Below are positions 48,489 to 52,087 of a stretch of 64,000 nt of DNA, in pieces. Position 1 is the stretch's first letter, and every line of letters starts with the position of its first letter. The notes under the pieces are model-generated. The model ran no database searches and was not told the origin of the DNA. It saw only the letters and a program-made list of their open reading frames with translations. Position numbers and translations under genes: made by a program. Source of the stretch: Paenibacillus sp. FSL K6-1096. GTDB lineage: Bacteria > Bacillota > Bacilli > Paenibacillales > Paenibacillaceae. The stretch covers positions 1,364,001 to 1,428,000 of the forward strand of contig NZ_CP150274.1 of NCBI RefSeq assembly GCF_037977055.1, written 5' to 3'.

Positions 48489-49352
48489 TTAACTTATTGA
48501 AACACCTGCACTGGCATAACCGGTAAGCGTTACGGCTAAAGCCGAGGTACCGGAGAATACCATGAGAAGACGGGTTCCCGCTGTGACAGGGATATTAAGC
48601 CCTGGTGTGTTGCCATTGACCGCATCTCCGATGCTGATCAATCCAGGCAAGCTCAAATTCACCTCTGCTCCTGAAATCGGAGCAAAGATGTTACTGTCCG
48701 GCGTAGTGGATGCAAAAAGTTGGGCTGTGACCGTTACAGGCGCCAGTAAAGACAGGCCTACAACTACACTGAAGAAGGCTGAAATTGAAGTAATTATGCC
48801 ATCGCGCGGAACTACAAAAGCATAGTTGGTCGCAACTCCGGCACCGCCGACAAGATTGACATTGCCGCCTGCGAGAGAGACACCCGGGAAATTGCCTCCG
48901 AATCCGACCAAAGTGGTTGTGCCTACAAGATTGCCAAGCAGTCCCGTAACGACAACCGGCAATCCCGATGAGAATGGAATAATGGCAGAGGAACCGGCGA
49001 CTCCAGTTGCCCCTGTCGCTCCGGTAAGCCCCGTCGCTCCCGTCACCCCGACTGCACCATCGGCTCCGGTGGCTCCCGTCGGGCCCGTCACTCCGGCAGG
49101 CCCCGTTGCCCCCGTCACTCCGGCTGCACCATCGGCTCCGGTGGCTCCCGTCGGGCCCGTCACTCCGGCAGGCCCCGTTGCCCCCGTCGCTCCGGCTGCA
49201 CCATCGGCTCCGGTGGCTCCCGTTGGGCCCGTCACTCCGGCAGGCCCTGTTGCTCCCGTCACTCCGATTGCTCCAGTCGCTCCAGTCGCTCCGGTGGCTC
49301 CCGTTGGACCTGTGGGCCCAACGGGCCCCCCAGCTGGGCCTGTAGGCCCGGT
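48489..49352 (-). pseudogene. 3' segment of the interrupted collagen-like spore-surface gene (BclB-type)
   Basis: 287 codons plus stop, open upstream only to a GTG at 49358, which has no ribosome site and is preceded by an in-frame TAG. It starts with Gly-X-Thr/Ala repeats (GPTGPAGGPVGPTG...), including three exact-length 72-bp units (boundaries at 49055, 49127 and 49199). The C-terminal 170 residues (TNYAFVVPRDGIITSISAFF, NIPVTAGTRLLMVFSGT) resemble the BclB-type exosporium domain. It completes the 52087 segment across the 2,417-bp element and joins it in frame. It may not be a pseudogene in the usual sense but half of a gene restored by excision. Confidence 0.82.
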
Positions 49353-49380
49353 CGTCACACACTAATAAGGAAAACCGGTA
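49341..49380. other. Element end 1: attachment site at the 3' segment
   Basis: Shared ACC (forward GGT, 49350-49352) at the host junction, then 15 bases, then arm AGGAAAAC at 49368-49375. The arm is the inverted copy of the one at the other end. Host sequence continues leftward as GGGCCTACAGGCCC in gene orientation. Confidence 0.75.
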
Positions 49381-49647
49381 TCCCCCAAGAAATTCGCAGA
49401 ACACCTCTTACTTCGACAAGCAAAGCTATTAGATCATCTGAAAGAAAGGTCTGGCAGACAATTTAGTTTATGCAGAGAATAGTGTGATTCACATCACGCC
49501 AGCAGGAATTATGTGGTAAATGAGTAACCAGGCATTCTATAATTTTAGCACCTCTTGATTAGATATATATACCAAAATTGAAGAGGCCGAGGCACACTGT
49601 TATGCAGTTTATATGGCTTCAAATAAAGCCTCTTTATAGATTCAAAA

Positions 49648-49677
49648 TCATAGGACAATCCGAGCTATGCATACGTA
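49648..49677 (+). promoter_or_regulatory. Possible sporulation-sigma promoter of the recombinase operon
   Basis: TCATAGG (49648-49654), a 15-base spacer and CATACGTA (49670-49677) resemble the SigE -35 and -10 (CATACANT) elements. The predicted start is about 25 bases before the small gene. Match to consensus is partial, so this is a suggestion only. Confidence 0.3.
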
Positions 49678-49710
49678 TGATAAAGATTAGGCTTAAGAGG
49701 AGGCGACAAA

Positions 49711-49980
49711 ATGCATCTAAAAAAACGTATTAAGCTTTCAGAGTTAGCAGAAGTAGATATCACAACTGTGAACAAGGAGGATTTGGCTGATCTTAGCGGT
49801 TTCACCTTCGATAACACTATTATTCAAGAGCAACGTGCAAAAGGTGTCATAACGGCTGCAAAAAACCCCTACTGCTTTCGCCTAGGTGAGACGGGTGTTA
49901 AATTGGAGTTCCCTGAGGATGCCCCCACTTTGCAGGATTTGTTCTCCGACTTTCTGAAACGTAACAAGAATGGTCTTTAG
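49711..49980 (+). CDS. Small DUF protein upstream of the recombinase
   Basis: 89 residues with no membrane segment. It resembles the small DUF6870-like proteins seen beside TnpX-type recombinases in clostridial elements, with the conserved-looking AAKNPYCFRLGETGVKLEF. AGGAGG lies about 8 bases before the ATG. It ends 44 bp before the recombinase gene, so both are probably on one transcript. It might assist the recombinase, for instance as a directionality factor; this is a guess from position and size. Confidence 0.6.
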   Translation: MHLKKRIKLSELAEVDITTVNKEDLADLSGFTFDNTIIQEQRAKGVITAAKNPYCFRLGETGVKLEFPEDAPTLQDLFSDFLKRNKNGL

Positions 49981-50024
49981 AGCTATTTATGGCCAGAGCT
50001 GAAAGGTAATGAGAGGGGGATAAA

Positions 50025-51719
50025 ATGCATAAAACCCGAGTTAACCCTGCGGAATTAGCTGCATTCAAGCAATCAAGGAAGGTATGGTATGTCGGACTCT
50101 ATATCAGATTATCCAAGGAGGACGAACACTTACTTAAGCATGACGATTCCGGGAGTATTAATAATCAGGTAAAAATTTTACGAAGGCATTTTTCTGAAAT
50201 AAAAGATGGAGATATATACCATATAGTCAAGATTTTCATTGATGATGGTGTATCAGGAACAACCGACGAGAAGCGGGAGAATTTCCAAGAGATGCTCGCC
50301 TATATTGTAGCAGGAAAGATTAATTGTGTTGCTGTGAAGGACTTGGCCCGTTCATTCCGCAACTATAGTGACCAGGGTTATTATCTGGACGATTTTTTTC
50401 CCCGTTATAACATACGTTTTATCTCGTTATATCACCAAACGCTGGATAGCTATAAAGCCCCCTATAACATGCGTAATATCTCCGTTCCCATACAAGGCCT
50501 GATCAATGAGAACCATTGTGCTGAAACCTCCGACAAGGTCAGAGCGGTATTTGACTTGAAACGCAGCAACGGCGAACATATCGGCTCCTTTGCCCCCTTT
50601 GGTTATTTGAAGAACCCGAATGATAAAAATGCTCTAATCATTGATGAAGCCGCTGCAGCTGTTGTCCGGAATATTTACAGCAGTTTTTTGGGAGGCATGA
50701 GCAAAAATGCGATTGTCCGGAGCCTAAATGAACAGGGCATTCTATGTCCGGCCTTGTATAAGCGGGAGGTTCTAAAACAGAAATATACAAATCCGAATCT
50801 GGATGCAACAAAAAAACCTTTATGGTCAGCTACATCCGTGACGACAATCTTAAAAAACCGTATGTATTGCGGTGATATGGTGCAAGGGCGCTATCGCAAG
50901 AAAAGCTATAAAATTCATGTGCAGGAAAGAATGCCGGAGAATGAATGGTACATTGTCGAGAATACCCATGAATCGATTATTGAACGGTCACTCTTTGAAA
51001 AGGCTCAGGTATTGTTGACGAAAAATACCCGAACCGGTCCGCAACAGAAGGAGCTGTACTTATTCAGCGGTTATCTGCGCTGTGCAGATTGCGGCAAGGC
51101 AATGGCGCGCAGCCAGGTTAAAGGCAACATCTATTACTTCTGCCGTACCTACAAAGACCAATCCAAAACAGCTTGCTCAAAGCACTCTTTCAAGCATTGC
51201 CAATTAGAGAAGGCTGTACTTTATGCAATCCAACAGCAGATTTATCTGGCAGTTGACTATTGGAAAACGATTGCCATCATCAACAAAGCCCCATTGTATA
51301 AAAGCCCGTCTGTTAAATTACAGAATGCTCTGGAGCAGAGAGAAAAACAGCTTGCAAATATTGCCCGATATAAGCAGCTCGTGTGGCAGGACTGGAAGGA
51401 TGGTTTAATCTCCCAGATGGAATATCTCCAAATGTCCGAGGGTTACAGCAGTCAAATGCAGGAGCTGGAACAGATCATTGATACATTGAGAGCGGAAAGG
51501 AAAACACTTAAACACGAAGTGGATGCCACGGAGCCCTTCTTCAAAGCATACAAGAAGTTTCAGAACATAGAGAAGCTGACTAGGGATGTCCTGGTTGAAC
51601 TTGTAGAGCAGATCAAAATCTATGAGAACGGAAATATCAGCATAAAATTCAAGTTCATAGATGAAATTCAAAGAGTGTATCAATATGTAGTGATTAATAC
51701 TCAATCTGAGGTGGTTTAA
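50025..51719 (+). CDS. Large serine recombinase, TnpX type
   Basis: 564 residues. The N-terminal resolvase domain (about 20-170) has the nucleophile S30 in YIRLSKEDE and DDGVSGT, and an arginine motif in DLARSFRNY. A recombinase domain (about 185-300) is followed by a zinc ribbon (RCADCGK, YYFCRTY), a coiled coil (about 430-500) and a C-terminal domain like DUF4368, the order in TnpX of Tn4451. AGGGGG lies 5-8 bases before the ATG. Its stop lies 25 bp before an arm of the element end and overlaps the tail of the N-terminal host frame. It probably catalyses excision and integration of this element. Confidence 0.92.
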   Translation: MHKTRVNPAELAAFKQSRKVWYVGLYIRLSKEDEHLLKHDDSGSINNQVKILRRHFSEIKDGDIYHIVKIFIDDGVSGTTDEKRENFQEMLAYIVAGKINCVAVKDLARSFRNYSDQGYYLDDFFPRYNIRFISLYHQTLDSYKAPYNMRNISVPIQGLINENHCAETSDKVRAVFDLKRSNGEHIGSFAPFGYLKNPNDKNALIIDEAAAAVVRNIYSSFLGGMSKNAIVRSLNEQGILCPALYKREVLKQKYTNPNLDATKKPLWSATSVTTILKNRMYCGDMVQGRYRKKSYKIHVQERMPENEWYIVENTHESIIERSLFEKAQVLLTKNTRTGPQQKELYLFSGYLRCADCGKAMARSQVKGNIYYFCRTYKDQSKTACSKHSFKHCQLEKAVLYAIQQQIYLAVDYWKTIAIINKAPLYKSPSVKLQNALEQREKQLANIARYKQLVWQDWKDGLISQMEYLQMSEGYSSQMQELEQIIDTLRAERKTLKHEVDATEPFFKAYKKFQNIEKLTRDVLVELVEQIKIYENGNISIKFKFIDEIQRVYQYVVINTQSEVV

Positions 51720-52087
51720 CTGGCTAATAATTCGCTAACTGCCCGTTTTCCTAATTTACGTGCTGCGGTTGCGCCAGTTGGCCCAACAAGCGTAGGAGTA
51801 CTCAGAATGCTGTCAAGCTTGCTGCTTAATAACCATTCCTTCTTTACCGTTTCACGCAATGTGCTGATCACACTGTCATTGACACTGAGAATATCGCTTA
51901 TTGTAACATCTGGAGCACTCACACCAGGCAAAGTTCCCAGAATATACTGCAGCTTCTCCCCCTCAGCATTAATAATGTGACTAAGGCCCAGTTCCTCCAT
52001 GGCTATAGATGAGATCAGTAACGAAATGGCGTCTTCTCTGGATAATGAAATAGTTGGCGTTATGTTGGGCAGGTTCGCTTGTGACAT
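51716..52087 (-). pseudogene. 5' segment of the interrupted collagen-like spore-surface gene
   Basis: 123 codons as read, but only the first 107 (52087-51767) are host sequence. The N-terminal domain (MSQANLPNITPTISLSREDA, SSIAMEELGLSHIINAEGEK) resembles that of the protein at 47010. It ends in LVGPTGAT, the start of a Gly-X-Y repeat, then runs 16 residues into element sequence (ARKLGKRAVSELLAS). GAGGAG lies about 8 bases before the ATG. Joining its T107 to G at 49349 gives GPTGATGPTGPAG and a predicted 393-residue protein. See the element and findings. Confidence 0.82.
51741..51790. other. Element end 2: attachment site at the 5' segment
   Basis: Arm GTTTTCCT at 51745-51752, then 15 bases, then the core (GT at 51768-51769 within the shared GGT 51767-51769), and host TGCGCCAGTTGGCCCAACA beyond. 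Placed end to end with the other junction, it forms an attP-like site with symmetric arms. Confidence 0.75.

What the first reader, a model, noticed from the sequence alone, without database searches (positions are those of the whole stretch)
48489..52087. Collagen-like spore gene split by a precisely removable recombinase element
The 5' segment (52087-51767) and 3' segment (49349-48489) of one reverse-strand gene are separated by 2,417 bp. Both junctions share ACC. Removing the interval from ACC to ACC joins GPTGAT to GPTGPAG in frame and in phase with the Gly-X-Y repeat, giving a predicted 393-residue BclA/BclB-like protein; as it stands the frame ends 16 codons inside the element. The 5' fragment has a paralogue at 47010 and the 3' fragment lacks a ribosome site. 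This is the pattern of skin-type elements (sigK, spsM, gerE) in which a recombinase restores a spore gene in the mother cell. An element this small and in a collagen-like gene is, to my knowledge, undescribed.
Basis: partly seen in the sequence, partly recalled or inferred. Interest (0 to 1): 0.95.

Follow-up and report, generated by a model that had tools for sequence, protein, structure and literature searches.

The report
Mobile element that targets collagen genes
A two-gene mobile element sits inside a collagen-like gene of a type found on spore surfaces, and relatives of its recombinase sit next to collagen-like DNA in 19 of the 21 integrated copies compared, usually at a threonine codon, so that its predicted clean excision would restore the gene in frame; whether it is cut out during spore formation is untested.

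Summary
Observation confirmed. A 2,417-bp insert (49351-51767) with a DUF6870 gene and a large serine recombinase splits a minus-strand gene at GPTGA|T. The halves belong together: one protein, P0126, carries both end domains (71% and 67% identity).

The interpretation shifts. This is a minimal member of a mobile-element family whose apparent attachment target is Gly-X-Thr codon-repeat DNA. Of 21 integrated copies whose recombinase is at least 54.5% identical (cut chosen after seeing the data), 19 lie beside collagen-like DNA, in either orientation; of 18 more distant copies, none do. In the 16 cases where frame is unambiguous, the inferred crossover sits on codon positions 1-2, at Thr (14) or Val (2), so excision would keep frame. 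Nine inserts bounded on both sides run from 2.3 kb to a 29-kb conjugative element; a 72.5-kb circular plasmid holds an uninterrupted attP-like site.

Sporulation-timed excision (skin-like) stays possible but unproven: no sporulation promoter beats shuffles, the family is mobile, and there are no excision data. New variant of a known kind; 10 paper searches found no account of collagen-gene targeting.

The parts
51770..52087 (-). 5' part of the split gene: N-domain and first Gly-X-Y triplet, 106 codons
   Evidence: N-domain found in 23 of 100 genomes of the genus, 12 matches in the own genome; no Pfam family above cut-off
48489..49352 (-). 3' part of the split gene: collagen repeats and BclB-type C-domain, no start codon of its own
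   Evidence: TIGR03721 E 8.6e-50, Pfam Collagen E 1.5e-19
49351..51767 (+). Inserted element, core to core, 2,417 bp
49351..49373 (+). Left end: core GT, 14 nt, AAGGAAA
   Evidence: same layout at the left ends of 8 other bounded elements
51745..51769 (+). Right end: GTTTTCC, 16 nt, core GT
49648..49679 (+). Conserved motif upstream of DUF6870 (TCATAGGACAA..., second TCATA/GCATA about 21 nt on); function unknown
   Evidence: also in L059 (48% identical recombinase), which is not in a collagen-like gene
49711..49980 (+). DUF6870 protein, 89 aa; candidate directionality factor (untested)
   Evidence: PF21757 E 5.8e-21; alignment of 14 relatives; AlphaFold model too poor to use (mean pLDDT 56.6)
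50025..51719 (+). Large serine recombinase, 564 aa, single copy in the genome
   Evidence: PF00239, PF07508, PF13408, PF14287; 1 match in own genome
46210..47010 (-). Uninterrupted neighbour with a paralogous N-domain and a basic, non-collagen tail; context
   Evidence: 58% over 95 residues

Best explanation
This is a minimal 2,417-bp mobile element (DUF6870 gene plus large serine recombinase) sitting in a collagen-like BclB-type gene, and its recombinase likely uses the DNA of Gly-X-Thr codon repeats as its attachment target, so that its predicted precise excision would restore the gene in frame. Shown by sequence: the split, the two-gene content, the paired ends with a shared core, the presence of both end domains in one uninterrupted relative, and the clustering of related copies beside collagen-like DNA. 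Inferred: attP x attB integration with crossover at the AC of a Thr codon, resting on the shared bases of the two ends in nine bounded elements. Inferred: excision is the reverse reaction and needs a directionality factor, for which the DUF6870 protein encoded just upstream is the only conserved candidate in the element. Inferred: because the target is locked to codon position 1-2 of the third residue of Gly-X-Y, loss of the element keeps the reading frame, and a gene needed only for the spore surface would be a cheap place to live. Untested: that excision happens at all, and when.
For: Of 21 integrated copies at or above 54.5% identity, 16 have a run of at least 5 Gly-X-Y triplets within 350 bp to the right of the recombinase; the window and G100 have it on the left, and G011 shows 4 triplets before its contig ends; together 19 of 21. 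Of 18 copies below the cut, 0 (Fisher p 1e-6; random window stretches 25 of 2000). Nine elements have both ends mapped with collagen-like DNA on both sides: 2340, 2417, 2559, 3584, 3760, 5682, 9018, 13008 and 29151 bp. Of 18 copies with an assignable core, 16 have an unambiguous collagen frame, all with the core at codon position 1: gene-strand AC (Thr) in 14, GT (Val) in 2; 10 antisense, 6 sense; G011 and G1670 are ties. The G100 insert has Pfam-supported conjugation genes (coupling protein, TrbL, PrgI, relaxase). CP141730.1, a circular 72.5-kb plasmid record, has an uninterrupted attP-like site behind its 75% identical recombinase. Tree of 24 recombinases: a clade of 18 (100/100) holds 14 collagen copies, the plasmid, 1 MetI-like insertion and 2 others.
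Against: The 54.5% cut was set after seeing the data; G1389 and G1289 (54% and 53%) fall inside the same clade of the tree and are not beside collagen-like DNA, which makes it 19 of 23 if they are counted. G051 sits in a permease-like gene (at GPTGA codons) and G101's second, broken copy has no collagen neighbour. Copies are not independent: G1165 and G1155 share the host locus, and several of the 18 distant copies are near-duplicates. Collagen label needs 4 changes on the tree. No recombination has been observed; DUF6870 is absent or lost in G103, G1389 and G1289 and was not found beside G101's second copy. One genome per species was available, so no strain with the empty site could be compared.
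Confidence: 0.85

Rival explanations
1. Skin-like element: the recombinase, or the DUF6870 protein as its directionality factor, is made in the mother cell and cuts the element out during sporulation, so that the spore gets the whole protein. It is compatible with the best explanation.
For: The C-part is of the exosporium BclB-related type. Both halves are open in 9 of 9 bounded inserts as far as sequence is available (the 5' halves of G972 and G1458 run to the edge of the stretch without a start). Between G1165 and G1155 dN/dS is 0.028 in the 5' half and 0.053 in the last 210 codons of the 3' half. Two genes are enough in a known case: sprA plus sprB alone excise SPbeta during sporulation (PMC4191935, passages).
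Against: No SigE, SigK or SigG/F-like site near the element genes beat shuffles (lowest: 95 of 300 shuffles as good, upstream of the collagen gene; consensus typed from recall). The family is mobile and carries cargo; sites and orientation vary. The dN/dS result rests on 7 changes in the 3' half, and the pair's inserts have unrelated cargo and left arms only about 78% alike, so a shared old insertion is not proven. Low dN/dS would also be seen if both insertions were recent.
Confidence: 0.25
2. Plain gene disruption: the insertion is recent, rarely if ever leaves, and the two halves are an inactive gene on the way to decay; other collagen-like genes of the genome take over.
For: The own genome has 12 N-domain matches, so loss of one may be harmless; some relatives show broken recombinases (G1158 and G1670, one stop each; G101 second copy, one stop) or lost ends (G1399).
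Against: The recombinase and both halves in the window have no stop or frameshift; both halves open in all nine bounded inserts; low dN/dS in the one testable pair, with the caveat above.
Confidence: 0.3
3. Recombinase as a shuffler: elements in different collagen-like genes exchange ends, making in-frame chimeric collagen proteins, because each core lies at the same codon position.
For: Core at codon position 1 in 16 of 16 unambiguous cases; different cargo at the same host locus in G1165 and G1155.
Against: The own genome has a single copy of the recombinase; no chimeric gene was looked for or seen.
Confidence: 0.05
4. The two halves are separate, independently expressed genes.
For: The N-domain also occurs alone in short ORFs.
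Against: P0126 and L029 join both domains in one frame; the 3' part begins inside the element arm without a ribosome site; the ends match a known pair of attachment arms.
Confidence: 0.03

Closest known systems
gin element in gerE of Bacillus cereus ATCC10987 (PMC5595907; abstract, introduction, one results section and discussion read)
   Same: Non-phage element with serine recombinase splitting a spore gene, short shared core, precise restoration predicted here and shown there; directionality factor (GirX) needed there.
   Different: gin is 28.6 kb with three recombinases at one site in gerE; sporulation-timed excision was shown. The window element is 2.4 kb with one recombinase, and its relatives occupy many collagen-like genes.
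SPbeta in spsM of Bacillus subtilis, and its cut-down form SPmini with sprA and sprB only (PMC4191935; passages read)
   Same: Large serine recombinase plus one small protein suffices for excision; the window element has just such a pair in size and number.
   Different: SPbeta is a prophage; SprB is 58 aa with a mother-cell promoter. DUF6870 has no known link to SprB, and no such promoter was found here.
yin element in yabG of Clostridium botulinum (PMC10747680; passages read, text only)
   Same: Element within a sporulation gene, seen as a circle; small directionality factors differ widely between elements (53 and 72 aa named).
   Different: Prophage-like and seen in one strain; no repeat-DNA target.
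Conjugative elements with a large serine recombinase of Bacillota (recalled class; member here: the 29-kb G100 insert)
   Same: Recombinase and DUF6870 at the right end; conjugation genes in G100.
   Different: The window element has none of the conjugation genes.
fdxN excision recombinase XisF and cassette recombinase CcrB (NCBIfam)
   Same: Domain-level similarity (98 and 94 bits).
   Different: Far below the curated cut-offs (375 and 900), so not members.

Membership tests
Sporulation gene-intervening elements (skin, SPbeta/spsM, gin, yin) | Element lies within a gene used in sporulation | tested here: inconclusive
   C-part is TIGR03721 exosporium BclB-related; this is annotation, and the host's sporulation was not shown.
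Sporulation gene-intervening elements (skin, SPbeta/spsM, gin, yin) | Serine recombinase encoded in the element | tested here: met
Sporulation gene-intervening elements (skin, SPbeta/spsM, gin, yin) | Short shared core at both junctions, in phase in both halves | tested here: met
Sporulation gene-intervening elements (skin, SPbeta/spsM, gin, yin) | Recombinase or directionality factor under sporulation control | tested here: inconclusive
   Consensus scan no better than shuffles; expression not testable.
Sporulation gene-intervening elements (skin, SPbeta/spsM, gin, yin) | Excision as a circle during sporulation | not testable with these tools
   No reads or cultures; only a relative, CP141730.1, is a circular record with an attP-like site.
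Large serine recombinases | Resolvase, Recombinase and zinc-ribbon domains | tested here: met
   PF00239, PF07508, PF13408 above cut-off.
Large serine recombinases | attP of two inverted arms about a central dinucleotide | tested here: met
   Arms and spacing in nine bounded elements and the plasmid site; cleavage position inferred.
Integrative conjugative element | Relaxase and conjugation genes in the element | tested here: not met
   The window insert has only the DUF6870 and recombinase ORFs of note; its relative in G100 does have them.

The most novel reading that the evidence does not exclude
A recombinase family reads the Gly-X-Thr codon repeat itself as its landing site. Every insertion is therefore locked to the reading frame, any collagen-like gene of any host can serve, and spore-surface collagen genes act as a harbour from which the element is released in the mother cell, which costs neither partner anything.
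Probability: 0.25. Interest if true: 0.9.

Novelty: new variant of a known kind. Interest (0 to 1): 0.72.

Why it matters
Site-specific integrases are usually thought of as bound to one conserved gene or site. A family that uses a repeated protein motif, written in DNA, as its target would link mobile DNA to one protein architecture across Bacilli and Clostridia, explain why such insertions keep frame, and mark collagen-like genes in public genomes as likely to be annotated as broken when they are only occupied. If excision is tied to sporulation, the 2.4-kb two-gene form would be the smallest natural case that I know of (from recall), and a simple system in which to study the control of excision. 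It may also be of use as an integrase with a designed repeat target.

Tried and rejected
Separate genes: rejected on P0126 and L029. Phage origin: 0 relatives of the window protein in viral contigs and no match of P0037 in the phage records; viral contigs copies found with P0037 are 47-51% identical to the window protein where readable, and none of the seven with a readable right flank is beside collagen-like DNA. Sporulation promoters: not better than shuffles. DUF6870 fold: model too poor, so no fold search was run. Shared old insertion in G1165 and G1155 as proof of selection: kept as suggestive only, since cargo and left arms differ. One search gave a wrong frame for the 3' half of G972 because of my scoring; the ORF list shows it open and in phase. 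Rows left out of counts: L010, L043, L044, L056, L058 and other duplicates of the same copies; L142 (same copy as L068); L130 (no right flank); L133-L137 (35% or less to P0037); W01 was kept out of the integrated counts as an unintegrated site. Names of cargo genes in elements other than G100 (MFS, MATE, ABC, MerR, PadR and the like) and of the MetI-like gene in G051 are from reading the ORFs, not from a search. In G100, 10 of 27 listed ORFs were scanned.
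Full report
The locus. On the minus strand a gene begins at 52087 with an N-domain and its first collagen triplets, and stops at 51716 after running 16 codons past the junction Thr codon into foreign DNA. Its continuation, collagen repeats and a BclB-type C-domain (TIGR03721, E 8.6e-50), runs from the core at 49352 to 48489. Between them lie, on the plus strand, a DUF6870 gene (49711-49980) and a large serine recombinase gene (50025-51719). 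The genome is a single contig of 7,194,942 bases and has one copy of this recombinase.

The halves are one gene. Protein P0126 (445 aa, record starts within the N-domain) matches the N-domain at 71% over 87 residues and the C-domain at 67% over 98% of its length. L029 in another species of the genus is one ORF with the same order of domains (46% in the C-domain). At the syntenic-looking locus L040 an N-domain collagen gene runs on uninterrupted at the matching place. P0122, a protein 73% identical in the C-domain, begins with residues that look like read-through from the left arm of another such element; this is read by eye.

Ends and core. The right end is GTTTTCC, 16 nt, GT; the left end is GT, 14 nt, AAGGAAA. 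Plasmid CP141730.1, whose recombinase is 75% identical, shows both arms in one uninterrupted site with the same spacing. Nine elements, the window's included, have both ends mapped with collagen-like triplets on both sides, from 2340 to 29151 bp. In the window the shared bases are ACCG on the gene strand; across elements the only dinucleotide common to both ends of each is AC/GT, which I take as the crossover point.

Target. Searches with the recombinase gave 3 of 100 genomes in the genus at E 1e-100, 3 of 398 in the phylum sample at 1e-150, 3 of 394 in the order of G100 at 1e-180, 4 of 295 in the family sample, 4 of 58 in the order of G102 and 6 of 285 in the order of G101; with relative P0037, 7 of 254 in the family of G1389 at 1e-200. 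Those counts overlap. Of 21 integrated copies at or above 54.5% identity to the window protein, 16 have at least 5 Gly-X-Y triplets in a row within 350 bp on the right; the window and G100 have them on the left and G011 shows 4 before its contig ends, so 19 of 21. The two without are G051 (a permease-like gene, cut at GPTGA codons) and a broken second copy in G101. Of 18 copies below 54.5%, none has such a run. The cut was chosen after the fact; G1389 and G1289, just below it, belong to the same clade of the tree, and counting them gives 19 of 23. Copies are not all independent.

Frame. Of 18 collagen copies with an assignable core, 16 have an unambiguous frame and in all 16 the core is at codon position 1: Thr (AC) in 14, Val (GT) in 2 (G100 and G1615a), 10 antisense and 6 sense. 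G011 and G1670 tie between frames. Restoration in frame is therefore a property of the target and no sign of developmental control.

Kinds of element. The smallest are the window, G1458 and G1086 (2.3-2.6 kb). G102, G1158, G1165, G1155 and G972 carry further ORFs that read like transporters and regulators (not tested by family search). G100 carries a coupling protein, TrbL, PrgI, a TraG-like ATPase, NlpC/P60, ParB and a relaxase (10 of 27 listed ORFs scanned).

Is the gene still in use? Both halves are open in 9 of 9 bounded inserts as far as sequence reaches; in G972 and G1458 the stretch ends before a start codon. In G1165 and G1155, two species with the same gene split at the same locus, dN/dS is 0.028 for the 5' half (12 synonymous, 1 other change), 0.053 for the last 210 codons of the 3' half (6 and 1) and 0.094 for the recombinase (41 and 16). 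If the insertion is older than the split of the two species, this says that the occupied gene is still under selection, hence regularly restored. Against it: cargo is unrelated and left arms are only about 78% alike, so two separate insertions are possible.

Sporulation control. Scans with recalled consensus strings found nothing better than shuffles. A conserved motif stands upstream of DUF6870 in many copies but also in a relative outside the collagen clade, so it is not tied to collagen targets. Known elements show that one recombinase and one small factor suffice (PMC4191935, passages) and that such factors differ widely (PMC10747680, passages). DUF6870 is the natural candidate; its model was too poor to compare, and no paper in the library names DUF6870.

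Literature. Ten searches gave no paper, by listing, on a recombinase that targets collagen-like genes; the library holds open-licence papers only. Read: PMC5595907 (abstract, introduction, discussion, one results section), passages of PMC4191935 and PMC10747680.

Verdict. A real and precise gene interruption by a minimal member of a mobile family with a likely codon-repeat target. The skin-like reading is an open, compatible possibility at about one in four.

Noticed in passing
G000:C1:1514371-1524676 (own genome, outside the window): N-domain collagen-like genes repeat with a spacing of about 4,095 bp (matches at 1516174, 1520270, 1524365), which looks like a tandem duplication.
   Followed up: no
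window 47032-48138 (-): Glycosyltransferase with TPR repeats next to the collagen-like gene (SunS-type model hit below cut-off); 17 of 100 genomes of the genus have a relative at E 1e-60. It may glycosylate the collagen-like protein.
   Followed up: partly
L007 1177-1509 (+), G051: A relative of the element sits in a permease-like gene exactly at codons for GPTGA, so a single short Gly-Pro-Thr-like stretch may be enough as target.
   Followed up: partly
L008 (CP141730.1): The plasmid with the attP-like site also carries genes annotated as ribosomal proteins S9 and L13 and the regulator Rex, which is unusual for a plasmid.
   Followed up: no
P0122 (202 aa): A close relative of the window's C-part (73%) begins with residues like those read from the left arm of such an element (FPIIKG), so it may be a second occupied gene of this type.
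   Followed up: no
window 49648-49679 (+): Two TCATA-like boxes about 21 nt apart upstream of DUF6870, conserved in many relatives; role unknown.
   Followed up: partly
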